From Geoalkalibacter subterraneus (lineage in GTDB: Bacteria; Desulfobacterota; Desulfuromonadia; Desulfuromonadales; Geoalkalibacteraceae), in assembly GCF_000827125.1 (NCBI RefSeq), contig NZ_CP010311.1:1798001-1862000 (forward strand): a stretch of 64,000 nt of DNA. The letters run 5' to 3'. Below the pieces are notes generated by a model. The model was not told the origin of the DNA. It ran no database searches and worked only from the letters and a program-made list of their open reading frames with translations. Positions within the stretch are counted from its first letter, which is position 1, and every line of letters starts with the position of its first letter. The position numbers were made by a program, and so were the translations under genes. This document shows, piece by piece, positions 453 to 44,322 of this stretch.

Positions 453-1072
453 GTTTTCTCCAGGAAAAGATCGCGGCCGGACCCCGAGCGGTAGAAGCGG
501 TATCTCAAAGGGTTTTCCTTGTAGTAATCCTGGTGATAGGCTTCAGCCGGATAGAACGCCGACGCCGGAAGGATTTCAGTGACGATGGGTCGCTTGAATT
601 TTCCCGATCGCGCTAACTCTTCCCGGGACTGTTCCGCCTGGCGGCGCTGCTCTTCATCCAGGTAGAAGATGGCGCTGCGATACTGACTGCCACGATCAAT
701 GAACTGTCCTCCATCATCGGTCGGGTCGATGTTCCTCCAGAACACCTCCAACAATTCCGGGTAGCTGATTTGCTCAGGGTCATAGCTGATTTCAACCGCC
801 TCAAGGTGGCCGGTTATTCCAGATGTCACCTGTTCATAGGAAGGATTTTTTACAGTTCCCCCTGTGTATCCTGAAACGACGGAAACAACTCCCGGCAGTT
901 TTTCAAAAGGCGGTTCCATACACCAGAAGCATCCTCCGGCAAAAATGGCTTTTTTGATGGTCTGCGGTTCTTTATCCATATCGTAACTCTCCTCTGCGGC
1001 ATGCGCTGAAAAAGAAGATGTCACAGCCATGACCGTAAATATGCCAAATGAAATGAAAAGTGTTCTTAACAT
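434..1072 (-). CDS. msrA: Peptide-methionine (S)-S-oxide reductase MsrA, exported form
   Basis: Reduces the S-epimer of methionine sulfoxide in proteins. The 212-residue product carries the family signature [10 protein letters not shown], with catalytic Cys48 and a nearby Cys51. Downstream are family-typical blocks such as [21 protein letters not shown] and the AYHQDYY segment. A 25-residue N-terminal hydrophobic stretch ending SAHA is a probable Sec signal peptide, so the enzyme likely repairs periplasmic proteins. An AGAGGGA ribosome-binding site precedes the ATG at 1072. No MsrB partner is adjacent. Identification is secure; export is inferred from the leader. Confidence 0.93.
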
Positions 1073-1129
1073 GGCGTCCCTCTGAAATCAGATGGTCTCG
1101 TTCTGTGAAGAGCAGATTCCGGTCTTCAG

Positions 1130-1157
1130 AATCTACACCAAAATTATTGCGTTACAA
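1130..1157 (-). promoter_or_regulatory. Candidate sigma-70 promoter of msrA
   Basis: Read on the minus strand, a TTGTAA box (1152-1157) is followed after 16 bp by TAGATT (1130-1135), about 60 bp before the msrA start. It is a consensus-like match only. Confidence 0.4.
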
Positions 1158-1278
1158 GGATACGATTTGACTCGACGGTGAATGAGCACCGTTTTCGACC
1201 GCGCAATTTGCCTTCGTTCTCTCATGAGATAAGATGATAATGTCAAAGTGAAAGAACTACTTTTCGGGAGGTTATGGC

Positions 1279-1995
1279 ATGTCCTTGCTGGAAATGCGCA
1301 ATATCGTTTACCGGACCCCTGACCGCACCATTATCGACCACCTGGATATGTCCCTTGATTCCGGCGAGGTGCATGCCCTGATCGGGACCAATGGCACAGG
1401 AAAAAGCACCCTTGCATATCTGATCATGGGGTGCAGCAGACAGAGCCCGCAGCAAGGGGAGATTGTTTTTGACGGACAAAAAATCAACGATCTTGAAATC
1501 CACGAACGTGCGCGTCTTGGGATCTCGCTGGCCTGGCAGGAACCGGTTCGATTCGAAGGCCTGAGGGTGGATGAGTATCTTTGCCTGCATGACAAAACAC
1601 TCGACGCCGATTCGTACCTGAAACAGGTTGGACTGGATCCCTCTTCGTACGCCAAACGAATGGTCGACAAGAATCTCAGCGGTGGTGAACGGAAACGGAT
1701 AGAACTCGCATCGGTGCTGGCGCTTAAACCTCGCCTAGCGATTCTCGACGAGCCTGATTCAGGCATCGATATGCTGTCGACCCGGGATATCCTCCAGGTG
1801 ATCGATTCTTTCAGGCAATCCGGTGCGGCAGTTCTGCTCATCACTCACCGCGAAGAGATTGCCGGCTGCGCCGATCATGCCTCCCAGATCTGTGACGGCC
1901 GCATCGTGTGCACCGGCGATCCTCGGCATGTGGCCGCTCACTATCAGAACAGAAAATGTCTTTTGTGCGACGGAGTGGAGTGTGGATATGAGTGA
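1279..1995 (+). CDS. sufC: SufC-like ABC ATPase of a minimal Fe-S cluster assembly system
   Basis: ATPase partner of the SufB-type scaffold that follows; the complex builds Fe-S clusters in the cytoplasm. The 238 residues show Walker A GTNGTGKST (36-44), signature LSGGE (133-137), Walker B LAILDEPDSG (153-162) and a switch His at 190. The family's usual LDEIDSG appears here as LDEPDSG. A C-terminal tail ends with three cysteines at 227, 230 and 235 (CX2CX4C), which is not typical of SufC and might bind a metal or cluster. GGGAGG precedes the ATG. The gene overlaps the next by 8 bp. No sufS, sufE, sufU, iscU or regulator is adjacent. The pair resembles the two-gene SMS (SmsC-SmsB) systems proposed as ancestral SUF relatives. 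Confidence 0.88.
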   Translation: MSLLEMRNIVYRTPDRTIIDHLDMSLDSGEVHALIGTNGTGKSTLAYLIMGCSRQSPQQGEIVFDGQKINDLEIHERARLGISLAWQEPVRFEGLRVDEYLCLHDKTLDADSYLKQVGLDPSSYAKRMVDKNLSGGERKRIELASVLALKPRLAILDEPDSGIDMLSTRDILQVIDSFRQSGAAVLLITHREEIAGCADHASQICDGRIVCTGDPRHVAAHYQNRKCLLCDGVECGYE

Positions 1996-2923
1996 AAATG
2001 ACCTTCTGCTGGAAGCTTTCGGTTCAAGCGGCGGCGACCGTGAGGTTTTCGAAGACCTGGAGGTGGCGCATCTTCTGGCCGTCGAGCACCGCATCCTGAG
2101 CGCACGGCAGGTGCAAGGACTGAAGGTGGACACCGAGGAAACCCCACACGGCATTGTTGCGAGAATCAGGGTAGCTGAGGACGTTAGAATCTCCAATCCC
2201 GTTCATCTCTGTTTCGGAGTCGTTCATTCTGAAGGCCTTCAGCAGATCGAAATGGACATTGTGCTCGAGCCTTACTCCTCGGTTGATTTTATCGCCCACT
2301 GCCTGTTTCCTAATGCCGAGAAGGTTCGTCATGCAATGATTGCCCGGGTTGAAATCGGGGAGGGAGCCAGGTTGCGCTATAACGAAACTCACGTACATGG
2401 CCCTCAGGGTGGGGTTGAAGTTGTCCCGAAAAGCCAGGTGCAGGTAGGTGAGGGCGGTCGCTTCAACAGCGAGTTCAACCTGACAAGCGGTCGCGTCGGC
2501 AGCCTGGATATGGATTATACCATCACCGGCTATGCCGACTCGGTTACGGAACTGATCGCACGCGTTTCCGGCAGCGGCAGCGATATGATCAAAATCCGTG
2601 AAAAGATTGTTCTCGAAGGAGAGAACTCCCGTGGTCTGATTAAATCAAGAATCGCTTTGCGGGATCATGCTTCGGCCGAGATCATCGGTTCGACCTCAGG
2701 AAACGCTGCCGGCGCACGGGGACATGTGGACTGCATGGAACTGGTCAGAGATCAGGCGGTCGCCCGGGCCGTCCCGATTGTCAACGTCACTCATCCGCTG
2801 GCGAAAGTGACTCATGAGGCAGCTATCGGCACGGTCGACCAGCGCCAGCTGGAGACGCTTCTGGCCCACGGGCTTTCCCCCGATGAGGCTGTGGACGTAA
2901 TCATAAGAGGGGTGCTGCGATGA
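1988..2923 (+). CDS. SufB/SufD-family Fe-S scaffold protein
   Basis: Scaffold subunit expected to pair with the upstream SufC-like ATPase. The ATG at 1988 lies inside the end of sufC, giving 311 residues; a longer in-frame opening upstream is only sufC antiframe. This is much shorter than SufB (about 480) or SufD (about 420) of the full SUF operon, because the N-terminal region is reduced to some 30-60 residues. The rest is the repetitive beta-helix core, with family-like segments such as LIKSRIALRDHASAEI and a C-terminal block (HPLAKVTHEAAIGTVDQRQ) matching the SufB/D hallmark around the conserved His and Glu. A single SufBD-type subunit encoded with SufC fits the SMS-type minimal organisation. 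Naming it SufB or SufD specifically is not justified. Confidence 0.85.
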   Translation: MSENDLLLEAFGSSGGDREVFEDLEVAHLLAVEHRILSARQVQGLKVDTEETPHGIVARIRVAEDVRISNPVHLCFGVVHSEGLQQIEMDIVLEPYSSVDFIAHCLFPNAEKVRHAMIARVEIGEGARLRYNETHVHGPQGGVEVVPKSQVQVGEGGRFNSEFNLTSGRVGSLDMDYTITGYADSVTELIARVSGSGSDMIKIREKIVLEGENSRGLIKSRIALRDHASAEIIGSTSGNAAGARGHVDCMELVRDQAVARAVPIVNVTHPLAKVTHEAAIGTVDQRQLETLLAHGLSPDEAVDVIIRGVLR

Positions 2924-2966
2924 GGGCTAACAGAACCTACGGTATCGCTTCTCGAGGAGTTCAAGT

Positions 2967-4463
2967 ATGAAAATTCTTCTGGTTTATCCTCATTATCCGA
3001 CCACTTTCTGGAGCTTTCGCTATGCGATGAAATTCATCGACCGTAAAGCCAGTTTTCCGCCGTTGGGATTGTTGACCATTGCTGCAATGCTGCCTGGAGA
3101 TTGGGAAAAGAAACTGGTCGACATGAATGTCCGCTCCCTTTCAGACGCAGATCTGATGTGGGCGGATTACGTTTTCATCAGTGCCATGACGATTCAGAAA
3201 GAATCGGCATGCGAAGTTATCGAACGGTGTCGACGCCTTGGGGTCAAGACTGTTGCCGGAGGGCCGCTGTTCACCTCCTATCATGAAACCCTGCCCGAGG
3301 TCGATCACCTGGTGCTGGGGGAAGGGGAGGTGACCCTGCCGCCTTTTCTGCAGGATCTGCAGCAGGGCGAACCCCGTCATATTTACCGTGCAGAGCAGTG
3401 GGCGCAGATCGAACAGACGCCGATTCCTCTGTGGGACCTGATCGACATGAAAGATTACGCGGCCATGAACATCCAGTACGGGCGGGGTTGTCCCTTCGAC
3501 TGCGAGTTCTGCGATATCACCGCTCTGTTTGGACGCCGGCCCCGCAACAAAAAAGTTGGCCAGATTATCGATGAGTTGGAGAGTCTGTATGCGCGCGACT
3601 GGCGTGGCGCGATCTTTTTTGTCGATGACAACTTTATCGGCGATAAGCCGACCCTCAAGAATGAGGTGCTGCCCGCCATCGTCGAATGGATGAAGGAGAA
3701 GGATTACCCCTTTTATTTCTATACGGAGGCGTCTGTCGATCTTGCAGACGACCCGCAGTTGATGGAATGGATGGTGCTCGCCGGATTTGAAGAGGTCTTT
3801 GTCGGCATCGAAACTCCCGACGATGCAGGGCTTGCGGAAACTTGCAAACTCCAGAACAGAAACCGCGACCTGATCGATTCCGTCAAACGCATTCAGCAGG
3901 CCGGATTACAGGTTCATGGTGGTTTTATTGTCGGATTTGACAGCGATACGCCGGGAATTTTCGAAAAACAGATCAGGTTCATTCAGGAAAGCGGCATTGT
4001 GACCGCTATGGTCGGCGTACTTTCCGCGCTGCGTGGAACCCGTCTCTACCAGCGGCTGGAGGGCGAGGGTCGCTTGCTTAAGGATTCGTCTGGTGAGAAT
4101 ACGATTTTTGACGTCAATTTTATTCCGCGCATGAATCCGGAAGCACTTCGCCTTGGCTATCAGAAAATTCTCGATACCATTTACGATCCTAAACAGTACT
4201 ACCAGCGGGTGATCAGCTTGTTCAAGGAATACAATCCTCGCCCGAAGGGAAAATTCCATTTGCAGAAGGGACATATCGGCGCATTGTTCAAGTCGATTCT
4301 CTGGTTGGGAGTAATTGGTAAGGAGCGCCTCCAGTTCTGGAAACTGTTTTTCTGGTCCCTGTTCAGAAAGCCGCGCCTTTTCCCCCTGGCCATTACCTAT
4401 GCCGTCTATGGTTTCCATTTTCGCAAGGTCGCAGAACGGGTCAGGGAGGGGGATTCTTTTTGA
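2967..4463 (+). CDS. B12-binding-domain radical SAM enzyme with a DUF4070-like C-terminus
   Basis: A 498-residue cytoplasmic radical SAM protein. Residues 1-140 form a cobalamin-binding-like Rossmann region (VYPHYP start, VAGGP, LGEGE). The radical SAM core follows, with cluster motif C175-X3-C179-X2-C182 in GRGCPFDCEFCD. Later core blocks are VDDNFIG, YTEASVDLA and GIETPD. The last 150 residues, with ALRGTRLYQRL and an Arg/Lys-rich amphipathic tail, match the DUF4070 type. Such proteins include hopanoid-modifying methylases and many uncharacterised members, so the substrate is unknown. It starts 43 bp after the suf-like pair, so co-expression with its cluster-assembly source is plausible but not shown. 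Confidence 0.85.
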   Translation: MKILLVYPHYPTTFWSFRYAMKFIDRKASFPPLGLLTIAAMLPGDWEKKLVDMNVRSLSDADLMWADYVFISAMTIQKESACEVIERCRRLGVKTVAGGPLFTSYHETLPEVDHLVLGEGEVTLPPFLQDLQQGEPRHIYRAEQWAQIEQTPIPLWDLIDMKDYAAMNIQYGRGCPFDCEFCDITALFGRRPRNKKVGQIIDELESLYARDWRGAIFFVDDNFIGDKPTLKNEVLPAIVEWMKEKDYPFYFYTEASVDLADDPQLMEWMVLAGFEEVFVGIETPDDAGLAETCKLQNRNRDLIDSVKRIQQAGLQVHGGFIVGFDSDTPGIFEKQIRFIQESGIVTAMVGVLSALRGTRLYQRLEGEGRLLKDSSGENTIFDVNFIPRMNPEALRLGYQKILDTIYDPKQYYQRVISLFKEYNPRPKGKFHLQKGHIGALFKSILWLGVIGKERLQFWKLFFWSLFRKPRLFPLAITYAVYGFHFRKVAERVREGDSF

Positions 4464-4837
4464 TCAGCTTAAATACCAGATTTTTGGTGGAGGCCGATAT
4501 GGTTCGTCTTCAGAGCCACCCAATCCTTCGGAAGCGCAACATTTCTTTAGGTTCACCTGGGGTGCCCACTTCCATCGCACCTTCAGGAATGGCTTTTTAC
4601 ACCGGCGATAAATTCCCCCGCTGGCAGGGGGATCTGTTTGTTGGAGCATTGGCGGGGCAGATGCTGGTCCGCTTGAGATTTGACGGAGAAGAACTGGTCG
4701 AGGAGGACCACCTTCTGAAAGATGAACTGGGACGCATCCGCGATGTGCGCGTCGGACCGGACGGCTTAATCTACCTGCTGACCGACCATGGAAACGGTGT
4801 GCTGGCGCGTCTGGAGCCGGTTGAGGATGAGAAGTAA
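4460..4837 (+). pseudogene. C-terminal remnant of a PQQ-dependent aldose sugar dehydrogenase (YliI type)
   Basis: The last 85 residues (from SIAPSGMAFYTG through FVGALAG, the RIRDVRVGPDG block and the GVLARLEP end) match the C-terminal blades of soluble quinoprotein glucose/sorbosone dehydrogenases. That family is normally about 350-400 residues. Only 125 codons are open here, and the first 40 do not look like the family, so most of the beta-propeller is missing. It starts 4 bp inside the end of the radical SAM gene. Read as a degraded, probably inactive remnant; it may be translated by coupling. Confidence 0.7.
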
Positions 4838-4858
4838 ATCAAGAGATAACTAGTGAGG

Positions 4859-4913
4859 CCGCAGTGCGTGACGACATCGTTTGCGATGACAAACACGCCT
4901 GCGGCTCAAACAG
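4859..4913. repeat. 55-bp structured repeat, copy 1 (between convergent genes)
   Basis: A 55-bp sequence that recurs at 13521-13575 with 48 of 55 bases identical. It folds on itself: CCGCAG at the left pairs with CTGCGG, the adjacent GCGTG pairs with CACGC, and CATCG/CGATG form an inner hairpin. It lies exactly between the sugar-dehydrogenase remnant (+) and the pilY1 stop codon (-), so it could act as a bidirectional terminator or be a REP-like element. Confidence 0.6.
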
Positions 4914-7900
4914 TCAGCGCAGTTGCCTCCAGGAGCGTCGGCCCAGCTCATCGGCATCGCCTCCTTTTTCGCGTATAACGGCGATCCCTCCCTCCGATCC
5001 ACCGAAGTATTTATATTCCAGGTCACCTGCTTCGATAACTGCCGGGGTTTTGATAATGCCGACCTGGGACTGAATGCCACTGGCAGCAACCGTCATGGTT
5101 GTGCCATCGACAATGATGGTGATTTTGTCATCGTCGTCGATTTCCGTATCGTCGTTCACGTCAAAAACCGATTCATCCAGGCGTGAGCCCATCACGGCGT
5201 CGAGTTCCATAAGCCAGCTCGTTCCGCCCGCAGAGCAGGGGTCCGCCAGAGGGATCAGAGTCGAAAAGATGACCCGTCCGCGACGCAGCACCGGCGCGCT
5301 GACGACACGCTCTCCCTGCAGGCCGGCAACCGGAGAGACGAGGTCGATGAACCAGCCGCGCTGAGGTGAGGGGTTGGCATTGTAATCGACGGAATTCTGA
5401 GAGACCGCCCGCAGCTGATCGTCGGATGAATCGTGCAGGACGCCTTCTGCCAGGATGGTCTGGGAGACAAGGGAGCTTCGATCCGTTTCCGTGATGCGGG
5501 AGTCGTTGTCCCATATCCCGTAAAAGGATTGAACAGGTGGGTTGGCCCCGACAATGTTGTCGCCGACTTCAAAGTATTTACCGGTGCCGAAGTAGACCAT
5601 CACGCCTCCTTCAGGGTGTGCGCCGAGCTCCAACGGAGCGGTAATGGGCTGCATCTGCCCCGAATTGTCGCGGGCAGTGAACAGGGGGCGTCTTACTGCG
5701 CCGGGGTTGGTGACAAAGGGGATGTCCCAGTCCGAAGCCAATTCGTCGTTTAGATCGAATTTCCAGAGATTCCCATGCAGGTCTCCGGCATAGGCCGTGG
5801 TCACGGTGCGATGGGCGTCGGTCAGCAGCGCCGGAACGGACAGGCCGTTGGGATCTCCGGCTGAGCCCGCACCCGTATCGATCCGGCGGATAAGCTCCCC
5901 GGATTGCGCATCAACAATGAACAGTTGCGCGCGGTGGCTGTCGCCGCCGTAACCGTTGCCGAACAGAACCGCCCACTGGCCGTTCTGCAGGCGCGCAAGG
6001 ACCGGTTTTCCGATGGCGTAGCCCATATCCGGATGGGAGAACTCCCACAGGACATTGCTCTCATCGAAAGTGTCCGGATCGGTGACATCGAGGGCGAAGA
6101 CGCTGCGCCCGCCGCCCCCCATGGTGCCGATGAGGATAGTTTTCCAGGAATCATTCAGGTATGCATCGCCGACACTGGGAGAACCGTCGACGTAATACCG
6201 GTGAACATAATCCGGGTCGCTCAGGTTGGCGAGCCCCGCCGAGGAAGCTGCGGCAGGGACATAGGCAAACTGTTCAACGCCGGTGTTGGCATCGAAGGCG
6301 TGCAGCATCCCATCATTGCCGCCGATATAGAGCAGGCGCGTCCGTGCGGCATTGTCGATGCGAAAAGACTTGTAGGTGTCCCTGCCCGGGGTGCCGGCGG
6401 GTAAATCCTGATACTGGAAATCGGGTGCGCCGACAATCAGGGGGTCGGAATTGACGATGTCGCCCAGGATATGTTCCCGCGGGCGCAGGTATCCGCCCTC
6501 CTGATCGTTTTCCATGCTCTGATCGCCGCGCAGCCAGTTGAGTCGATCTTTGCCCTGATCGTCCGAGCCTCCGGCACGCAGGTCCGTGCGCTGCACGCTT
6601 GAAAGGTTGTCCCACCCCGCCACGGTGAAGGGGACCCCGTCCGTGCCGTTCCAGGTAAAGATGCTGCGATCCCCATGCGCAGGGACCTTGCCGGAGTCAT
6701 GCGTATCCCATTCCACCTCTCCCACCGATCCATCGCTGTTGATGTTGTAGGCCAGGATCTGTCCGCTCCATGTTTCACTGTCGAAACGTGCCTGATAGAT
6801 GAGGGTGTTATCGATCAGGCGTGTGGAGTTGGTGGCGATAGCCGCAGCAGTCCCCGTCTTCCTGTCGACGAGGGACGCCAACAGGCCGCCAAGCTTTTCG
6901 GAAAAAATTTCGGGGTCCATGGCGCTGAAGAAATCGCCCCTGCTGTTGAGAGATGCATGCCAGAGATCGTCAATTTTGGCTCCCCTCGGGGTGGCATCCG
7001 TAGTCGGGTCGGGCCAGTCAAGGTCTCCGGACTTGAGAGAGCCCAGATCCGTTTTCTGGTCGAGAGTCCCCGAAACCCCGAGGCCGACGCCGAAGGTCAC
7101 CATGCTCTGCCAGTAGGCTTCGTTGAAAACTGAAGTCGGTACGCGGTTGGAAATATTCGGGCAGAGATCACGGTTCCAGTAATACATCGCGACATCGGCA
7201 AGCGTGTCGGACCAATCGTCCTGATAGGGAGGTTCGGGGGTGTATTGAAAATTTTCAGCCAGGGGGACGGGGTTGAGAATGCTCGGCCCGTTCTGGTCGT
7301 CAACGTTGGCCCGCCTCGAAGAATGGCGGGCGGCGTGCTCGTTGCCGACATTCCAGTAACCGTCCGTCATCAGAACCGTATAGCTGTTGCGACAGGCGAG
7401 ATTTGACCCGCCGGTGGCCCCGGGCGTTGTGTTCCAGGGGCCGCGGGCATCCTCGCGGGTGTAATACTGGCCGACATCATCAAGTGCACGTCGCAGGGGA
7501 GTGCCGGACAAGGGAATGTCGCGTTCATACAGAAGAGAAAAAAACTCCTCCCGATCGGTACCGGAGAATGACCTGACTCCGCGCACCATGGTTCCTGGAC
7601 TGGCTTCGGAGTCCAGATAGGAACTGCCCGCGTTGATCGTACCGTATCCGACGCGAATGTCTTCGCCCTGGGCGGCAAAAGCACGGCCGATGCCACCGCG
7701 CGAAGTGAGGATGCGGGAGCGGTGGTAGGTGTACCAGTTGGCGAAATTCTGAATCTCCTCTTCATAGGTGCAGGCGTCGGGGTCTGCGCAGTCCGTGCGT
7801 TTGGGACCCCCGATAAAGGGACCGTTGCCCGCTTTTATCTCGATGCGTTCATAGCTCGAGGCTTCGTTGACATCTCCGCCTTGATAATTGAAATAAGTCG

Positions 7901-38275: not shown

Positions 38276-38617
38276 ATGCTGACCGACGCCCTAACAGAAC
38301 AATTGGTCGAAAAGCTTAAGAACGCTGACCCCTATAAAATTATTCTGTTTGGATCCCATGCGTATGGGAATCCAGGCCCGGAAAGTGATATCGACCTGCT
38401 GGTTGTCACGGAAGATGATTACCTGCCAGCGAATTTTGCCGAGAAAAATGCCATTTATCTTCGAGTCGCCAACACGATCATCGACATTGAAAAAAAGATT
38501 CCGGTTGACCTGATTGTTCATACCAAAGCCATGCATCGGAAATTCGTCGAGATGCAAAGCATGTTCTCCAGGAAAATTACCTCCGAAGGAAAAGTTTTGT
38601 ATGAAAAAGCTCACTGA
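38276..38617 (+). CDS. MNT-type nucleotidyltransferase, module 1
   Basis: 113 residues. Minimal nucleotidyltransferase fold with GSHAYG at 26-31 and the catalytic pair in SDIDL (D38, D40). Proteins like this are antitoxins that AMPylate or otherwise restrain a partner HEPN protein. The partner follows with a 17-bp overlap. GGGAGGG precedes the ATG at 38276; a longer upstream opening is not used. A third acidic residue may be the Asp in IPVDLIVH. Confidence 0.88.
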   Translation: MLTDALTEQLVEKLKNADPYKIILFGSHAYGNPGPESDIDLLVVTEDDYLPANFAEKNAIYLRVANTIIDIEKKIPVDLIVHTKAMHRKFVEMQSMFSRKITSEGKVLYEKAH

Positions 38618-38969
38618 GGAATGGCTTCGAGCCGCCAAAGACGATCTTGATGTTATGGAAAAGATTCTCGGCGAGGCCCACCTTTCCCATATCACTGCTT
38701 TTCATGCTCAGCAGTGTATTGAAAAGGCTTTTAAGGCAGTGTATGAAGAACATGGGATTGAATCTCGAAAAATTCACAACCTGATCACATTATATGGCGG
38801 AATAGAAGAAGTGCTGAGCCAGGAAATGGATCTTGCGTTGCTGAAAACCCTGGACTCCCTTTATATTGAAGCTCGGTATCCCGGTGAGTTGGGACTGCTG
38901 CCGAGCGGCCGCCCATCTTTGGCAGATGCCGAAAAGTTTTACGATTATGCAAAGTTCTGGCAGAGTTGA
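38601..38969 (+). CDS. HEPN-domain protein, module 1
   Basis: 122 residues of the HEPN (PF05168-like) class: [42 protein letters not shown] and EARYPGELG. There is no R-X4-H-X-Y ribonuclease motif, so it may be a substrate-binding form or act differently from HepT. Its ATG is inside the MNT gene. The last few residues (FWQS) and the stop lie in DNA shared with the HEPN remnant that follows, so the C-terminus may be altered by recombination. Confidence 0.85.
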
Positions 38970-39294
38970 CGGAACTCGAATTGGCCGGCGTCGCGGCGCT
39001 GCTTCACAATTTTTACAACGGGATCGAAAATATCCTCAAGCAGGCTTGCAGGGCTAAGGGCATTATCCTGCCGCAGCGGCCTCTTGGCACCGGGATCTTT
39101 TGCTGGTGGCCGTAAAGGAATGCATTATTTCCCCGGCAGCTGCTGACGACCTTCTCCGATTCCTTGCATTTCGCCATTTTTTCAGCCATGGTTACGCATT
39201 GGATCTCTTCCCGGGCCGTATGGAGCCGCTGGCTCAAGAGGCTCCGGGGTTGTTTGAACGCTTCAGAGCTGAAATTGATCATTTGCAGTTATAG
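38957..39294 (+). pseudogene. C-terminal half of a HepT-like HEPN gene, frameshifted
   Basis: From 38957 one frame reads [17 protein letters not shown] then [12 protein letters not shown] and stops at a TAA near 39114. The adjacent frame, from about 39090, continues as [25 protein letters not shown] and MEPLAQEAPGLFERF to a TAG at 39294. Together they give the C-terminal two-thirds of one HEPN family, split by a frameshift around 39075-39090. There is no start codon or N-terminus. A matching N-terminal remnant lies at 42039-42143. Confidence 0.7.
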
Positions 39295-39315
39295 ACTTTG
39301 CACGGGATTGTGTAG

Positions 39316-39370
39316 GCGCAGCGAACGGGCGAGAGATAGTCTTGATTTTGATGGGCTTGGTCCGACCCCA
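39316..39370. repeat. Partial copy of the 131-bp island repeat (internally deleted)
   Basis: Begins GCGCAGCGAACGGGCGAGAGAT and ends GCTTGGTCCGACCCCA, matching both ends of the full repeats at 40608 and 43372 but lacking about 75 bp of the middle. Confidence 0.7.
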
Positions 39371-39402
39371 AGGGTCAGGGGCTTCAGGAGGGGGGAGGCG
39401 AC

Positions 39403-39753
39403 ATGGAAGAAAGAGAGTTTCGACGAATCGAAGAAATGATGGGCGGCATGATGGGCCGCTTCCGGGCTGAGCTCGGCCAGGAACTGACGCAACTCCGCAG
39501 CGAGATTGTCGAGGAGTTCCGACACCAGATAGGCGTTCAGCGCGAAGATCTCCAGCATAAACTCGACTTGGTGGTCGAAGGGCAGCAGATGCTGGCAGAA
39601 AAGCTGGAAGAAACACGATCTGAGTTGAAGGTGGACATAGGCAAGATCGATCAGAGAGTTACTGCAGTCGCCGCTGACCTCGCCGCCCACCGCCGCGACA
39701 CCGAGGCGCATCGGAAAGGGTGGCGGGTGAGGGAGAAGGAAGGCGGGGAGTGA
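39403..39753 (+). CDS. Small coiled-coil protein in the HEPN/MNT island
   Basis: 116 residues with a strong GGAGG 5 bp before the ATG. It is highly charged and almost entirely helical, with heptad-like stretches (FRAELGQELTQLRSEIVEEF, LDLVVEGQQMLAEKLEE) and an end motif AAHRRDTEAHRKGWRVRE. Probably a coiled-coil oligomer. No catalytic motif is visible. Its place between toxin-antitoxin modules suggests an accessory or passenger gene; no function can be assigned. Confidence 0.72.
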   Translation: MEEREFRRIEEMMGGMMGRFRAELGQELTQLRSEIVEEFRHQIGVQREDLQHKLDLVVEGQQMLAEKLEETRSELKVDIGKIDQRVTAVAADLAAHRRDTEAHRKGWRVREKEGGE

Positions 39754-39788
39754 CTGATACGCGTTGGTGGCTGGAAGATAATCTGGTT

Positions 39789-39807
39789 GACAAGTAAACA
39801 ACGTCCC
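39789..39807. repeat. Short repeat (GTAAACAACG type), copy 2, upstream of MNT module 2
   Basis: Second copy of the sequence at 38232-38249, ending 14 bp before the ATG of the module 2 MNT gene. Confidence 0.5.
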
Positions 39808-39821
39808 CAATGGGTCCACTT

Positions 39822-40148
39822 ATGAAAAACGCCAACGAAGAACTGCTTAAAGAAATGACCAGCCGGCTGGTTGCGGAATTCAACCCCGACCAAGTGATCC
39901 TTTTCGGTTCTCAAGCCTGGGGGGCACCTACCGAAGACAGTGATATAGATTTATTCGTTGTCGTTCCCGACAGTAAGGAGAGGCCCTTGGCGAGGATGCG
40001 CCGTGCTTTGGCCTGTCTTGAGGGTATGGGGGTTTCCAAAGATGTTCTAGTAAAAACGCGCCGTGAAGTGGAGAGGTTTCGCACTGTGCGCGCTTCCCTC
40101 GAAAGCCAGGTGTTGGAAGAAGGCCGAATTCTCTATGAACGCCATTAA
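39822..40148 (+). CDS. MNT-type nucleotidyltransferase, module 2
   Basis: 108 residues from the ATG at 39822; an ATG at 39810 lies at the repeat edge and has no ribosome-binding site either. The motif is GSQAWG (29-34) with SDIDLFVV (D41, D43). The C-terminal third (DVLVKTRREVERFR, ILYERH) is typical of MNT antitoxins paired with HEPN. The partner overlaps by 14 bp. Confidence 0.87.
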   Translation: MKNANEELLKEMTSRLVAEFNPDQVILFGSQAWGAPTEDSDIDLFVVVPDSKERPLARMRRALACLEGMGVSKDVLVKTRREVERFRTVRASLESQVLEEGRILYERH

Positions 40149-40542
40149 GGACGATCTCACAAAGGGCTGGCTCATTAAGGCCAAAAGGGACCTCCTTTCA
40201 GCGCGGCAATTGGCGCAGGGTCCTGCACCTTTGCTGGACACCGCTGCTTATCATTGCCAGCAGGCGGGCGAGAAAGCCATCAAGGGATTTCTCGTCTTTC
40301 ACGATATTCGTTTTGAAAAAACTCACGATCTGGATGTGCTGATATCCCAGGCCGCTGAAATCGAGACGGGGTTTCTTGCCTGTCGTCAGGCAGGACGAAT
40401 CCTGACCCCATTAGCTGTCGCCTTTCGTTATCCGGGTGATTATATTGAGCCAGAATTGGAGGAGTACCAGGAGGCTTTTTCCGCAGCGCAGGAAATCTAC
40501 GATTTTGTTACAGATTTGCTACCCGAGCGGCTGAACGCATAA
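40135..40542 (+). CDS. HEPN-domain protein, module 2
   Basis: 135 residues. HEPN core blocks are GWLIKAKRDLLSARQL, AAYHCQQAGEKAIKGFLVF, THDLDVLISQA and AFRYPGDYIEPE. As in module 1, the R-X4-H-X-Y motif is absent; the conserved RYPGDY is present instead. It begins inside the MNT gene and is probably made in a fixed ratio to it. Toxin or substrate-binding function is inferred from the pairing. Confidence 0.87.
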   Translation: MNAIKDDLTKGWLIKAKRDLLSARQLAQGPAPLLDTAAYHCQQAGEKAIKGFLVFHDIRFEKTHDLDVLISQAAEIETGFLACRQAGRILTPLAVAFRYPGDYIEPELEEYQEAFSAAQEIYDFVTDLLPERLNA

Positions 40543-40607
40543 TGATAATTCCCTGTATTGTTTGCACGACCTTGGGATTGGATTTCCTTCAGCGACTTTG
40601 CTCTCTG

Positions 40608-40738
40608 GAGAGAGCGCAGCGAACGGGCGAGAGATGATCTTGATTTTGATGGTGAAATGGGGCTTTTAAGGCCGAAATGGCGGTCTTTTTTGGTTTATTG
40701 TGTAGTGGAAACAGTCGGTTGGCTTGGTCCGACCCCAG
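40608..40738. repeat. 131-bp island repeat, full copy 1
   Basis: Starts GAGAGAGCGCAGCG and ends GGCTTGGTCCGACCCCAG. It matches 43372-43502 at all but three of 131 positions. It lies downstream of module 2. No protein is encoded and no clear inverted repeat spans it. Bases 40739-40821 hold nothing recognised. Confidence 0.85.
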
Positions 40739-40821
40739 AAGGCACAGAAGGCACAGCAAAATATCGGGGCGGTGGCCGTTGATGCGCATTCGTTTTTGCC
40801 CGAAGCCGAGGCTGAACTCGT

Positions 40822-40851
40822 GGGCTTGTCAACAATAAAGATTTGACCCCG
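40822..40851. repeat. 30-bp island repeat (CAACAATAAAG type), copy 1
   Basis: Reads GGGCTTGTCAACAATAAAG and ends TTTGACCCCG; identical to 41730-41759. It ends 26 bp before the ATG of MNT module 3. Confidence 0.8.
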
Positions 40852-40877
40852 TTTCCATCTCTGCCCCGGGAGAAATC

Positions 40878-41192
40878 ATGGGAAGGATAAAAAAAGAAAA
40901 TCTCGATGTGCAACAGGTGGCTGAACGTCTCCGTCAGGAAATCCCGCGCCTGCGCCGTGACTACGCAGTTCGGTCTCTTGGCCTATTTGGGTCATACGTT
41001 CGTGGTGAGCAGCGTCGCGGCAGCGATCTCGATGTTCTGGTTGAGTTTTCTGAAGTGCCCGGAATGCTGCGCTTTCTTGATCTTGAACGAGATATCTCAC
41101 AGTTAGTTGGCATACCTGTCGACCTGGTGCAGAAGGAAGCTCTCAAACCCGCTATCGGCCGGCGAATCGAAAAAGAGGTTCTGCCGATATGA
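40878..41192 (+). CDS. MntA-like nucleotidyltransferase antitoxin, module 3
   Basis: 104 residues. Nucleotidyltransferase motif GSYVRG at 38-43 with [10 protein letters not shown] (D50, D52) and the later [11 protein letters not shown] block. This fits MntA, which polyAMPylates a tyrosine in the HepT active-site motif to silence it. A good GGGAGAAA site precedes the ATG. The HepT partner overlaps by 4 bp (ATGA). Confidence 0.9.
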
Positions 41193-41557
41193 AAGAGCCG
41201 CGCGTGGTTCAAGATTATCTGGGCGATATTCTCGATGCGATGGACAAAGCTGAGGAGTTCACTGACTCGATGAACCTTCAGGCATTCAAGAAAGATGATA
41301 AAACCGTTTTTGCTGTCATTCGGAGCTTGGAAATCATTGGCGAAGCGGCTAAAAAGATACCGGCTAATTTGAGACGAAGATTCCCTGATATCCCGTGGAA
41401 AAGTTTAGCGGGAATGCGCGACAAGTTGATTCATGATTATGTCGGTGTAAGTCTTGAGGTTGTCTGGCGTACCGTAAAAGAAGATATCCCAACAGTGCGG
41501 CCACGTTTGAACGATATGCTGGAGACAGTTCGGGATGAAGAGGCTAATCGTCCTTGA
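41189..41557 (+). CDS. HepT-like HEPN ribonuclease toxin, module 3
   Basis: 122 residues (DUF86/HepT). The ribonuclease motif R-X4-H-X-Y is complete: R77, H82 and Y84 in RDKLIHDY. Preceding blocks are [13 protein letters not shown] and [17 protein letters not shown]. In studied HepT-MntA pairs the tyrosine is the AMPylation target, so this module looks functional and MntA-regulated. The gap that follows (41558-41729) holds only short intergenic text, including a GGTTTTCACGCAAAGCCGC scar. Confidence 0.9.
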
Positions 41558-41729
41558 ACCATGGAAGATGGCTCTAAACGGTGTAGTCCTGGCTCCTTGG
41601 CTTATTTCTTCGCATTCTTTGGGGCTTGAGGGAGGGTTAGCGAACGGGCGTGAGGCAGGTTTTATGGGGCGGTTTTCACGCAAAGCCGCAAAGAAAGTCA
41701 TATTCCACCCGCGGACAAAGAGGGATGAA

Positions 41730-41759
41730 GGGCTTGTCAACAATAAAGATTTGACCCCG
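41730..41759. repeat. 30-bp island repeat (CAACAATAAAG type), copy 2
   Basis: Identical to 40822-40851, ending 17 bp before the ATG of MNT module 4. Confidence 0.8.
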
Positions 41760-41776
41760 CCCAGCGAGAGGCTTTT

Positions 41777-42046
41777 ATGATCGAGGAAAAAGACCTGCAG
41801 GCCATCCGGGCGATTGCACGCAAATATCAGGTTTCCAGAGTTTTGCTCTTCGGCTCCTCTTTATCCGCGAGTTGCGACAGCCGGGATATCGATTTGGCCG
41901 TCGAAGGCCTTGCTGATGCCGACTATTTCGCTTTTTACGGCGATTTGATGCGCAGCCTCTCAAAACCCGTCGATGTGGTCGACCTTTCACGCGCGTCCAA
42001 GTTCGTGGAAATGATCGAGCGCGAAGGGATTCGTCTCGATGCCTGA
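41777..42046 (+). CDS. MNT-type nucleotidyltransferase, module 4 (partner broken)
   Basis: 89 residues. Motif GSSLSA at 26-31 and RDIDLAVEG with D37 and D39; the usual second Gly is replaced, so activity is uncertain. GAGAGG lies upstream of the ATG. The stop overlaps the start of the HEPN partner remnant at 42039, as expected for an intact pair, but that partner is cut off after about 30 codons. This leaves an antitoxin without an intact toxin. Confidence 0.8.
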   Translation: MIEEKDLQAIRAIARKYQVSRVLLFGSSLSASCDSRDIDLAVEGLADADYFAFYGDLMRSLSKPVDVVDLSRASKFVEMIEREGIRLDA

Positions 42047-42143
42047 TTATCGCCTTCGCATCGAAGCCGAATATGAAGCAATTGAACGCACTTTGGCACT
42101 GCTGCCTACCCGCCCCCTGCAGAGTTGGCGGAGCTCCGCTTGA
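42039..42143 (+). pseudogene. N-terminal remnant of the HEPN partner of module 4
   Basis: The ATG at 42039 overlaps the MNT stop and opens 34 codons (MPDYRLRIEAEYEAIERTL start, then ALLPTRPL) before a TGA. The break falls in a sequence (CTGCAGAGTTGGCGGAGCTC) closely similar to the first bases of the C-terminal remnant at 38957, less one base. Together the two remnants would complete one HEPN protein. Alternatively the last bases belong to a lost antitoxin of the ParE fragment that follows. Confidence 0.6.
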
Positions 42144-42147
42144 AAAA

Positions 42148-42402
42148 GTGGCTCACCGAATAGTATGGTCCCCGCAGGCGTTGTCCGACGTGGAGGGGAT
42201 TGCTGAATATATAGAGCAGGACTCTCCTTTTTATGCGCGAACCGTTGTCGCCAGGATCGTCGCTGCGACCAGGAATCTGGTACAGTTTCCCATGACGGGG
42301 CGTGTTGTCCCTGAAATGATGGATTTCGCTTTAGGTGTTTGGCTTGGTCCGACCCCAGTGTCAGCGTTCATTCTGCAGAGGAAACTTCAAGGGTCGAAAT
42401 AA
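42148..42402 (+). pseudogene. Truncated ParE/RelE-family toxin
   Basis: From a GTG at 42148 the frame reads AHRIVWSPQALSDVEGIAEYIEQ, followed by ARIVAATRNLVQFPMTGRVVPEM, the first two-thirds of a ParE toxin. After that the family sequence (the final strands with the usual YRI block) is missing. Instead the frame enters the GGCTTGGTCCGACCCCAG tail of the island repeat at 42339-42358 and continues with unrelated residues to a stop. No antitoxin gene is intact upstream. Probably inactive. Confidence 0.7.
42339..42358. repeat. Tail of the 131-bp island repeat at the ParE truncation point
   Basis: TTGGCTTGGTCCGACCCCAG matches the last 20 bp of the repeats at 40608-40738 and 43372-43502. Confidence 0.7.
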
Positions 42403-42456
42403 TGAGTCTCCCTTATCGGAAGCGATGCAAAACTGGATGTTCAAGAGGACAATGTG

Positions 42457-42864
42457 ATGGACGAAAAAGATATTCGTTGGCAACAGAGGTTCGCAAATTA
42501 TGAGAAAGCCTATCTGCGTCTTGAAGAAGCCATCAATCAGGAAAATTTGAATGAGCTGGAGCGTAATGGTCTGATCCAGCGCTTTGAGTTTACCCTTGAT
42601 CTAGCCTGGAAGGTATTAAAAGACTTTTTACAGGAAAAAGGTTTTGTTTTTAAACCGTCCCCCAAAGATACCCTGCGCATGGCCCAGCAGGGAGAATACA
42701 TCTCTTACGCCCAGGAGCTGATTGACGGCCTTGAGATAAGAAACGAACTGTCCCACGATTACAGTGGTGAAAAATTTGAACGGTCAGAAAAGATTCTGCG
42801 TGAACAAACATTTGTTGCCCTGAAAAAGCTGTACCAATTTTTAAAGGACGAGAGCTTACGATGA
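42457..42864 (+). CDS. HI0074-type nucleotidyltransferase-binding HEPN protein, module 5
   Basis: 135 residues of the nucleotidyltransferase substrate-binding (HI0074) family: DIRWQQRFANYEKAYLRLEE, FEFTLDLAWKVLKDFL and the RNELSHDY motif. That motif is R95-X4-H100-X-Y102, the same R-X4-H-X-Y pattern as HepT. It precedes its MNT gene (overlap 4 bp), the reverse of modules 1-4. AGAGGA lies before the ATG at 42457; a GTG one codon earlier is possible. Confidence 0.9.
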   Translation: MDEKDIRWQQRFANYEKAYLRLEEAINQENLNELERNGLIQRFEFTLDLAWKVLKDFLQEKGFVFKPSPKDTLRMAQQGEYISYAQELIDGLEIRNELSHDYSGEKFERSEKILREQTFVALKKLYQFLKDESLR

Positions 42865-43187
42865 GTTTGCCTGATAAAAACCGGTTTGGCCTCACCGCAA
42901 GGGATATGCAGACGCTGCGAGAAATTTTTGACCAATATCCAGAGGTCAAAACGGTTGTCGTTTTTGGAAGCCGTGCCAAAGGAACATTTGCCGCCGGCAG
43001 CGATATCGATCTGGCGATTATGGACAGGTTGAAGAGCGAAGACGTCATCCGTCGCATTAAAAGCGCTCTGGATGACAGTACATTGCCCTATTTTGTGGAT
43101 CTTGTCGGGTATCACTTTTTGCAGGACGCGGCATTCAAAGAACATATCGACCGGGTTGGAGTCGATTTATTTTGCCGCGGGAACTGA
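42861..43187 (+). CDS. HI0073-type nucleotidyltransferase, module 5
   Basis: 108 residues. Motif GSRAKG at 36-41 and GSDIDLAI with D48 and D50; the third acidic residue is in PYFVDLVGY. Partner of the preceding HI0074-type protein. Pairs of this kind (HI0074/HI0073) form heterocomplexes. Looks intact. Confidence 0.9.
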   Translation: MSLPDKNRFGLTARDMQTLREIFDQYPEVKTVVVFGSRAKGTFAAGSDIDLAIMDRLKSEDVIRRIKSALDDSTLPYFVDLVGYHFLQDAAFKEHIDRVGVDLFCRGN

Positions 43188-43371
43188 TGCCTGGTGACCG
43201 TCCAATTTCATTTGCGGCTCAGAAGCTGTCGCGAAAAGAGAGTCAGACATTGACAGCTGCCCGCATCCACTTTATTGGTTCGCCTTTGTTTTGATTGTAA
43301 TGTTTCCATCTGCGCAAATCCGCCTTTATCTGCGTTCAAGAAAAAGTTCTTCTCCGCGTTCTTTGTGTTTT

Positions 43372-43502
43372 GAGAGAGCGCAGCGAACGGGGGAGAGATG
43401 CTCTTGATTTTGATGGTGAAATGGGGCTTTTAAGGCCGAAATGGCGGTCTTTTTTGGTTTATTGTGTCGTGGAAACAGTCGGTTGGCTTGGTCCGACCCC
43501 AG
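43372..43502. repeat. 131-bp island repeat, full copy 2
   Basis: Differs from 40608-40738 at three positions and has the same length. It separates modules 5 and 6. The flank 43188-43371 has no gene, but contains CATCTGCGCAAATCCGCC-like intergenic text, part of which (TTTATCTGCGTTCA) recurs at 38198. Confidence 0.85.
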
Positions 43503-43565
43503 ACGGGCCAGTCGCCCCAGAAGGGCCAGTCTGCAGGAGTGGGGATTAAGGATTAGGGAGAAATT

Positions 43566-43982
43566 ATGTCGGGCCAGGATGTCCGCTGGCAACAGCGGCT
43601 TAACAACCTTAAAAAGGCGTTCGCTCAACTCGAAAAGTTCATCGTCAAAGGAGATCTGTCAGAACTGGAAATGCAGGGGCTGGTCAAGGCTTTTGAATAC
43701 ACCTACGAGCTGGCCTGGACGACGATGAAGGATTTTTTGGAATTTCGCGGTCAGACTGGTATCTATGGTTCCAGGGATGCAATTCGCAAGGCATTTCAGC
43801 TTGCCTTGGTAGAGGACGGCAACCTTTGGATGGATATGCTGCAAAGCCGGAATAAAACCTCACATACCTACAATGAAGAGACTGCCAGAGAAATTTGTCA
43901 GGCAGTCACAGAGGACTATTATCCGGCTTTCGCACAACTGATAGATAAGCTTGATGGCCTCAGGTCGGAATATGACAGCTGA
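43566..43982 (+). CDS. HI0074-type nucleotidyltransferase-binding HEPN protein, module 6
   Basis: 138 residues, paralogous in layout to module 5: DVRWQQRLNNLKKAFAQLEK, FEYTYELAWTTMKDFLEFRG, and RNKTSHTY with R95, H100 and Y102 forming R-X4-H-X-Y. AGGGAGAAATT precedes the ATG. Its MNT partner begins 11 bp before its stop. Probably the toxin-like or substrate-binding half of the pair. Confidence 0.9.
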   Translation: MSGQDVRWQQRLNNLKKAFAQLEKFIVKGDLSELEMQGLVKAFEYTYELAWTTMKDFLEFRGQTGIYGSRDAIRKAFQLALVEDGNLWMDMLQSRNKTSHTYNEETAREICQAVTEDYYPAFAQLIDKLDGLRSEYDS

Positions 43983-44322
43983 CAATGAATTTGGTATCTC
44001 ACCAACCGACTTAGCCAGAATTGTCGGTGTGTTTGAGCACCATGAAGATATTGACGAGGTTGTCCTCTATGGTTCGCGTGCCAAGGGCAATTATCGGCCA
44101 GGATCAGATATCGATCTGACCCTGTGCGGGGAGAATCTCAATCTTAGGACTCTAAACCGGGTCAGCAATGATCTGGATGACCTGTTGCTCCCATACAGTT
44201 TTGATGTCTCGATCTACAGTCAAATAGAAAATGAGGATTTAATTGATCATATTCAGAGGGTTGGAGTGACGATTTATCGCGTGTCTGGTGAGCGTCTGAG
44301 ACAAGTGAACCCTTTGGGTTGA
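43972..44322 (+). CDS. HI0073-type nucleotidyltransferase, module 6
   Basis: 116 residues from the ATG at 43972. Motif GSRAKG at 34-39, GSDIDLTL with D46 and D48, and a later FDVSIYSQI with the third acidic residue. Partner of the HI0074-type protein of module 6. It is the last gene of the island; the following 190 bp have no gene. Confidence 0.9.
   Translation: MTADNEFGISPTDLARIVGVFEHHEDIDEVVLYGSRAKGNYRPGSDIDLTLCGENLNLRTLNRVSNDLDDLLLPYSFDVSIYSQIENEDLIDHIQRVGVTIYRVSGERLRQVNPLG

What the first reader, a model, noticed from the sequence alone, without database searches (positions are those of the whole stretch)
1279..4463. Minimal SufC-SufB/D pair with a Cys-rich SufC tail next to a radical SAM enzyme
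Only two Suf genes are present: a SufC with LDEPDSG and a C-terminal CX2CX4C tail, and a 311-residue SufB/D without the long N-terminus. No desulfurase or sulfur-transfer gene is nearby. This fits SMS-type minimal systems proposed as ancestral in anaerobes, which suggests sulfide as sulfur source. A cobalamin-type radical SAM protein follows within 45 bp. The Cys tail on an ATPase is unexpected and could be a cluster or metal site.
Basis: partly seen in the sequence, partly recalled or inferred. Interest (0 to 1): 0.65.

Follow-up and report, generated by a model that had tools for sequence, protein, structure and literature searches.

The report
Accessory SMS iron-sulfur scaffold, Cys-tailed SmsC
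Two overlapping genes encode a two-protein iron-sulfur cluster builder of a recently described ancient kind, apparently kept here as an extra beside the cell's usual machinery; its cysteine tail is the expected cluster-binding site, with one additional conserved cysteine.

Summary
Window 1279-1995 and 1988-2923 encode a SufC-like ATPase (238 aa) and a short SufB/D-like protein (311 aa), overlapping by 8 bp. By sequence, fold and tree the pair is an SMS (SmsC-SmsB) of the Methanocaldococcus jannaschii type, not canonical SUF. The Cys tail is no surprise: two 2025 papers place the [4Fe-4S] cluster on three SmsC/SufC cysteines, and the M. jannaschii ligands C218/C239/C242 align with C205/C227/C230 here. 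C235 is extra: in 66 of 68 members of the window's mostly bacterial clade and in none of 15 nearest outgroup sequences. The genome also holds NifS and two NifU/IscU-type scaffolds, and 47 of 50 genomes with related SmsB hold a NifU/IscU domain, so this SMS looks accessory, not the sole or plainly inherited system. The radical SAM neighbour is not conserved. In a sub-clade that excludes the window, smsCB often lies beside arsenic-resistance genes (20 of 50 loci; 0 of 80 control stretches), a post-hoc finding that a held-out set replicated only weakly (2 of 20; 0 of 19). Verdict: a new member of a known kind with a clade-specific fourth cysteine and an unresolved accessory role.

The parts
1279..1995 (+). 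smsC: cytoplasmic ABC-type ATPase (238 aa), SmsC/SufC family
   Evidence: ABC_tran 4.7e-28; best solved relative MJ0035 SmsC, 220.6 bits against 122.3 for the next, Thermus SufC; the four best Foldseek hits are M. jannaschii SmsC chains, TM 0.88-0.89 by query length; below the TIGR01978 sufC cut-off, 165.9 of 212.8
1891..1992 (+). SmsC C-terminal region with C205, C227, C230 (aligned with MJ ligands C218, C239, C242) and the extra C235
   Evidence: alignment with MJ0035; C205 68/68, C227 67/68, C230 68/68, C235 66/68 in the clade, C235 0/15 in M. jannaschii/Methanosarcina-type and Chloroflexota SmsC; ligand data in PMC12192291
1988..1995 (+). 8-bp overlap of the smsC end and smsB start (translational coupling inferred)
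   Evidence: read in the sequence; with the smsB start inferred by alignment, the genes overlap by 1-40 bp in 68 of 84 relatives' loci, by exactly 8 in 48
1988..2923 (+). smsB: short SufB/D-core protein (311 aa)
   Evidence: SUFBD_core 4.7e-19; MJ0034 SmsB 224.9 bits, then 4dn7 83.3 and E. coli SufB 30.3; C105, C249, H276, E277 align with E. coli SufB C254, C405, H433 (and SufD H360), E434 and are kept in 79 of 79 aligned locus sequences
2967..4463 (+). B12-binding radical SAM protein with DUF4070 (498 aa), 43 bp downstream; possibly co-transcribed, not a conserved partner
   Evidence: domains; orthologues occur without smsCB and smsCB without it

Best explanation
smsCB is a two-gene SMS operon. 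SmsC and SmsB form an SmsC2B2 heterotetramer that builds one [4Fe-4S] cluster on the C-terminal region of SmsC, held by C205, C227 and C230, with C235 as a possible fourth ligand or hand-off residue. It probably uses free sulfide and iron, with ATP and cluster binding mutually exclusive as in M. jannaschii, and passes the cluster to [4Fe-4S] clients. In this cell it is accessory to a housekeeping NifS/IscU system, like SUF beside ISC in E. coli. Shown here: family membership, aligned ligands, the clade-specific fourth Cys, coexistence with NifS and NifU/IscU-type genes. Inferred: assembly state, sulfide use, ATP antagonism, accessory role.
For: MJ0035/MJ0034 are the best solved relatives by a wide margin. 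The AlphaFold model (pLDDT 88.6, residues 231-238 below 50) matches M. jannaschii SmsC best; the apo tail is disordered in the solved structure too. The tree puts the window in a 68-row clade (100/99) next to M. jannaschii, Methanosarcina and Chloroflexota SMS; long-SmsB archaeal SMS and E. coli SufC fall outside. Ligand cysteines conserved. Experimental ligand data in PMC12192291 and PMC12584684 (passages). Own genome: NifS beside an IscU-type gene, plus a NifU-type gene; 47 of 50 genomes with related SmsB hold a NifU/IscU domain above cut-off.
Against: Nothing was measured on this protein. Deleting both sufCB pairs of Methanosarcina acetivorans, which also has IscSU, changed neither growth nor total Fe-S content, and its authors leave open that SufBC does something else there (PMC10500019). 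For Thermococcus kodakarensis the authors propose SmsB residues (C357, H385, E386) as cluster ligands instead (PMC12442378, passages), and window SmsB keeps the matching residues, so a SufBD-like site is not excluded. NCBIfam's SmsB model NF052511 is hit far below its cut-off (64.8 of 650). Coexistence with NifS leaves cysteine-derived sulfur possible.
Confidence: 0.8

Rival explanations
1. The clade's SMS is a stress device: an Fe-S assembly or repair scaffold kept for metal(loid), chiefly arsenic, or protein-damage stress, when the thiol-dependent NifS/IscU route is hit.
For: ACR3, ArsP_1 or ArsC in 20 of 50 smsCB loci against 0 of 40 IscU loci (15 of them from the 20 linked genomes) and 0 of 40 random 10-kb pieces; an arsR-family gene is the commonest same-strand next gene, 8 of 51 scanned; families named; the gene orders differ; an Hsp20-like gene in 6 of 84 (query's own included) and 5 of 20 loci against 1 of 79 control stretches.
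Against: Families were chosen after seeing the loci; related loci are not independent; 30 of the 40 random pieces come from five genomes whose smsCB shows no ars link. The other 30 loci gave 2 and the held-out set 2 of 20 against 0 of 19. None of the nine Geobacter/Desulfuromonas-type loci of the 50 gave a core hit, and the window plus 18 kb upstream has none. Co-transfer on resistance islands would give the same pattern.
Confidence: 0.2
2. SmsCB here mainly matures the adjacent B12 radical SAM enzyme as a dedicated client.
For: 43-bp gap, same strand. A radical SAM enzyme (MmpX) co-purifies with SufBC in M. maripaludis; its M. acetivorans homologue requires cobalamin by the title of a paper in that reference list (PMC12584684). 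AmmeMemoRadiSam-type radical SAM genes lie near smsCB in 5 of 84 loci with strong matches, the query's own included.
Against: The two genes occur without each other in the same family. A motif count gave 0.84-0.86 radical-SAM-like ORFs per 100 kb in sms loci against 0.47-0.82 in controls, though the pattern misses some known ones.
Confidence: 0.1
3. SMS is the cell's ancestral, sulfide-fed main Fe-S system.
For: SMS family membership; M. jannaschii SMS can use sulfide.
Against: NifS and NifU/IscU-type genes present; any SufB/D in 6 of 98 genomes; 36 of 245 genomes of the L018 genome's phylum (Nitrospirota) have the close type at E <= 1e-60; Ca. Methanoperedens SMS nests inside the bacterial clade, which suggests horizontal transfer.
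Confidence: 0.05
4. The Cys-rich tail binds As(III) or another soft metal and couples it to ATP hydrolysis, rather than holding an Fe-S cluster.
For: Conserved Cys cluster on an ATPase, and the arsenic-gene neighbourhood of part of the clade. The parallel with the ArsA ATPase is recalled, not tested.
Against: Three of the four cysteines align with shown Fe-S ligands; the window has none of the arsenic genes sought nearby.
Confidence: 0.04

Closest known systems
SMS (SmsC2B2) of Methanocaldococcus jannaschii, MJ0035-MJ0034; PDB 9h78, 9h7x, 9h7y, 9hbl (PMC12192291)
   Same: Two-gene SMS, short SmsB, aligned ligands C205/C227/C230, disordered tail, best sequence and fold match
   Different: Extra conserved C235; this host also has NifS and NifU/IscU-type genes and is a bacterium
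SufB2C2 of Methanococcus/Methanothermococcus (PMC12584684, passages)
   Same: Three C-terminal SufC cysteines (CXnCXXC) hold a labile, transferable [4Fe-4S] cluster
   Different: That paper calls the motif largely absent in bacterial homologues; the clade described here is largely bacterial and adds a fourth Cys
The two SufCB pairs of Methanosarcina acetivorans (PMC10500019)
   Same: SMS coexisting with IscSU; dispensable; role open
   Different: Archaeal; related Methanosarcina-type SmsC here have CX2C without the fourth Cys. Which M. acetivorans pair is of this type was not tested
Canonical SUF (SufBC2D, E. coli)
   Same: ABC-ATPase plus SufB/D core; Cys/His/Glu positions of SufB/SufD kept in SmsB
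   Different: No second SufB/D and no A-type carrier in this genome, no N-terminal SufB region; E. coli SufC lacks all four cysteines

Membership tests
SMS (SUF-like minimal system) | Only SufC-like and SufB-like genes, no SufD, in one operon | tested here: met
   one SufB/D match in the whole genome; overlapping genes
SMS (SUF-like minimal system) | SmsC and SmsB closer to known SMS than to SUF | tested here: met
   PDB scores, fold and SmsC tree; E. coli is the only canonical SUF row put into the tree, and no SmsB tree was built. NCBIfam's SmsB model NF052511 is hit far below its cut-off, 64.8 of 650
SMS (SUF-like minimal system) | SmsC C-terminal Cys ligands aligned with MJ C218/C239/C242 | tested here: met
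   C205, C227, C230
SMS (SUF-like minimal system) | Binds and transfers a [4Fe-4S] cluster; ATP and cluster exclusive; sulfide as sulfur source | not testable with these tools
   needs biochemistry
Canonical SUF | SufD, SufS and A-type carrier present | tested here: not met
   one SufB/D only, no PF01521 match; the two strongest desulfurases are NifS and EF2568 types, SufS model below cut-off for both; the 7 weaker Aminotran_5 matches were not named and SufE was not tested
Arsenic-linked SMS sub-group | ars genes beside smsCB | tested here: not met
   no hit of the ArsR, ArsP_1, ArsC, ACR3, Trx3 or DUF2703 representatives in the window or 18 kb upstream

The most novel reading that the evidence does not exclude
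A mostly bacterial SMS lineage has turned the ancestral three-cysteine, labile SmsC site into a four-cysteine site and uses it not for housekeeping but as a sulfide-fed Fe-S rebuilding scaffold under metal(loid) and thiol stress; it spread between Nitrospirota, Geobacter/Desulfuromonas-type and other bacteria and Ca. Methanoperedens, in part together with arsenic-resistance genes.
Probability: 0.15. Interest if true: 0.7.

Novelty: new member of a known kind. Interest (0 to 1): 0.4.

Why it matters
What SMS does in cells that already have IscSU is left open in print (PMC10500019). This clade offers a defined bacterial case with a clade-specific fourth cysteine at the cluster site and, in part of the clade, a testable link to arsenic stress. 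It also warns against reading SMS in an anaerobe as an inherited ancestral main system.

Tried and rejected
Rejected: canonical SUF. Rejected as a conserved unit: smsCB with the B12 radical SAM gene. Rejected: msrA/msrB as conserved partners, 0 of 84 and 0 of 20 loci. An arsenic link for the window itself was looked for and not found. The promoter/terminator scan of 1000-5000 was uninformative: no promoter-like site, 5 terminator-like sites against 4.3 expected. No Rfam match at gathering scores and no tRNA in the window. PMC12138975 gave nothing on suf genes (passages only). Full-text searches for an SMS-arsenic link (listings seen) found none; this says only that those term combinations found nothing in that library.

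Dropped or limited rows: the tool kept the best 80 of 300 relatives. The tree left out six loci by list (L006, L032, L061, L063, L066, L079) and any SmsC under 210 aa. IscU co-occurrence was asked for 50 of the 80 named loci. Of 52 downstream and 45 upstream neighbours listed, 51 and 44 were given to Pfam. L005 and L006 were in no ars scan, and the L003 and L004 stretches scanned are 3.9 kb. A representative's own locus was not counted for its own family. The random pieces come from seven genomes and lie on contigs that also carry IscU. One duplicate (L237 = L068) was dropped from the held-out set; in 3 of the 21 fetched no SmsC was found there, two being cut by contig ends and L231 not.
Full report
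What is there. SmsC (1279-1995) and SmsB (1988-2923) overlap by 8 bp and are followed after 43 bp by a B12-binding radical SAM protein with DUF4070 (2967-4463). msrA lies upstream on the other strand.

Family. SmsC scores below NCBIfam's sufC cut-off (165.9 of 212.8). The best solved relatives are M. jannaschii SmsC (220.6 bits; next Thermus SufC 122.3) and SmsB (224.9 bits; then 4dn7 83.3, E. coli SufB 30.3). An AlphaFold model of SmsC from 55 sequences (mean pLDDT 88.6, residues 231-238 below 50) has M. jannaschii SmsC chains as its four best PDB matches, TM 0.88-0.89 by query length. In a 110-row SmsC tree the window sits in a 68-row clade (100/99) of Nitrospirota, Geobacter/Desulfuromonas-type and other 'Deltaproteobacteria', a few Pseudomonadota and, nested inside, Ca. 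Methanoperedens. M. jannaschii, Methanosarcina and Chloroflexota SMS are nearest outside. Archaeal SMS with long SmsB (open frames mostly 370-440 aa) and E. coli SufC lie further off. The program warned that long branches (E. coli SufC, L007) meet, and E. coli is the only canonical SUF row.

The tail. In M. jannaschii SmsC one [4Fe-4S] cluster is held by C218, C239 and C242 (PMC12192291, abstract, passages and sections 4, 12, 13). These align with C205, C227 and C230 of the window (the chain numbering is offset by 3). Mutagenesis of M. thermolithotrophicus SufC found three ligands in the same kind of C-terminal motif (C218, C237, C240; PMC12584684, passages). For T. kodakarensis the authors instead propose ligands on SmsB (PMC12442378, passages). 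In the window's clade C205 is kept in 68 of 68, C227 in 67 of 68, C230 in 68 of 68 and C235 in 66 of 68; 65 of 68 have the full CX2CX4C. In 12 M. jannaschii/Methanosarcina-type and 3 Chloroflexota sequences the first three are kept in 15 of 15 and C235 in 0 of 15; the M. jannaschii row was typed only to its CX2C and shows a gap there. E. coli SufC has none. C235 therefore looks like a derived feature of the window's clade. That it supplies the fourth ligand, which the M. jannaschii authors suggest may be solvent, is inference. The same paper reports variable Cys number, position and spacing in SmsC tails, bacteria included in its models, so this arrangement may already be in its dataset.

Role. 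The genome (3.72 Mb, 99.99% complete) has one SufB/D, a NifS beside an IscU-type gene, a second NifU-type gene, an EF2568-type desulfurase, and no A-type carrier match. Any SufB/D is found in 6 of 98 genomes, own included, one of them distant at 26% identity. The close SmsB type is in 36 of 245 genomes of the phylum of the L018 genome (Nitrospirota; E <= 1e-60). In the phylum of a Ca. Methanoperedens genome 135 of 148 have some SmsB match, five of them a close one (E <= 1e-105), and three of those five also carry a second, longer-frame one. Of 50 genomes with related SmsB, 47 have a NifU/IscU domain above cut-off. Presence is patchy and accessory, which fits transfer or repeated loss better than steady inheritance of an ancestral main system. 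Dispensability of SMS beside IscSU has been shown in M. acetivorans (PMC10500019, abstract, introduction, discussion and passages).

Neighbours. The radical SAM gene is not a fixed partner: G003 has an 80% orthologue but no SufB/D, and G001 and G004 have smsCB but no orthologue at E <= 1e-40. In the published M. maripaludis system a radical SAM enzyme (MmpX) co-purifies with SufBC, and by a reference title its M. acetivorans homologue requires cobalamin (PMC12584684, passages), so the neighbour may be a client without being dedicated.

In relatives recurrent neighbours are arsenic genes: arsR (PF01022), ArsP_1, ACR3 (TIGR00832 above cut-off), arsenate-reductase-like (best model TIGR02691 just below cut-off) and ArsA-type. 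ArsP_1, ACR3 or ArsC lies within the locus in 20 of 50 smsCB loci (487 kb), in 0 of 40 IscU loci from 40 of the same 50 genomes (423 kb; 15 of these from the 20 linked genomes), and in 0 of 40 random 10-kb pieces from seven of them. Thirty of the 40 random pieces come from five genomes whose smsCB shows no link, so the IscU set is the better control. Fisher's p of about 1e-6 for each control is descriptive only: the families were picked after seeing the loci, and related loci are not independent. The other 30 loci gave 2. A held-out set of 20 further genomes of the same phylum gave 2 against 0 of 19 random stretches, which is no replication on its own; many of its SmsC tails resemble by eye those of the named Nitrospira loci (L085, L096, L097), which also lack the link. 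None of the nine Geobacter/Desulfuromonas-type loci among the 50 shows it (L039, L040, L044, L046, L051, L054, L062, L063, L065), nor does the window with 18 kb upstream. The link is a property of a sub-clade and is not evidence about the window's own pair.

Verdict. Ordinary in kind: a bacterial SMS whose Cys tail has a known function. What remains of interest is the clade's conserved fourth cysteine and the unexplained accessory role.

Noticed in passing
L018-L067 (e.g. L027, L050, L058, L053): smsCB in the same stretch as arsR, ArsP_1 permease, ACR3, arsenate-reductase-like and small thioredoxin genes in Nitrospirota, Ca. Methanoperedens and 'Deltaproteobacteria'.
   Followed up: yes
L005, L039, L040, L044, L054; weaker L065, L239, L246, L249: AmmeMemoRadiSam-type radical SAM gene near smsCB: 5 strong (query's own included) and 1 weak of 84 loci, 3 at about 40% identity of 20 new loci, 0 of 79 control stretches.
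   Followed up: partly
L039, L044, L062, L085, L096, L097; L236, L246-L248, L251: Hsp20-like gene (named by eye) near smsCB in 6 of 84 (query's own L085 included) and 5 of 20 loci, 1 of 79 control stretches.
   Followed up: partly
L003:417-1517 (-): In the close relative G001 a YedE/TsuA-like transporter (selenium or thiosulfate type, below cut-offs) directly follows smsB.
   Followed up: no
L231 (G307:C1:1959543-1972469): SmsB at 58.6% identity on a 2.37-Mb contig with no SmsC match (tblastn E <= 1e-5) in the 12.9 kb fetched around it: a possible orphan SmsB.
   Followed up: no
window 4460-4837: 125-aa ORF matching only the last quarter of a glucose/sorbosone dehydrogenase (PF07995 251-331 of 332); looks like a remnant gene.
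   Followed up: no
window 38514-44322: Run of short ORFs that read by eye like repeated HEPN/nucleotidyltransferase pairs, in a stretch of lower G+C (about 0.48-0.51 over 38-44 kb).
   Followed up: no
L098 6660-9659 and 15298-15813: Two consecutive genes that read by eye as sulfide-using O-acetylhomoserine sulfhydrylases, and an msrB-like gene, within 12 kb upstream of the window.
   Followed up: no
L172 (own genome C1:2414201-2415073): ArsP_1 permease match with one in-frame TGA: selenocysteine or broken gene.
   Followed up: no
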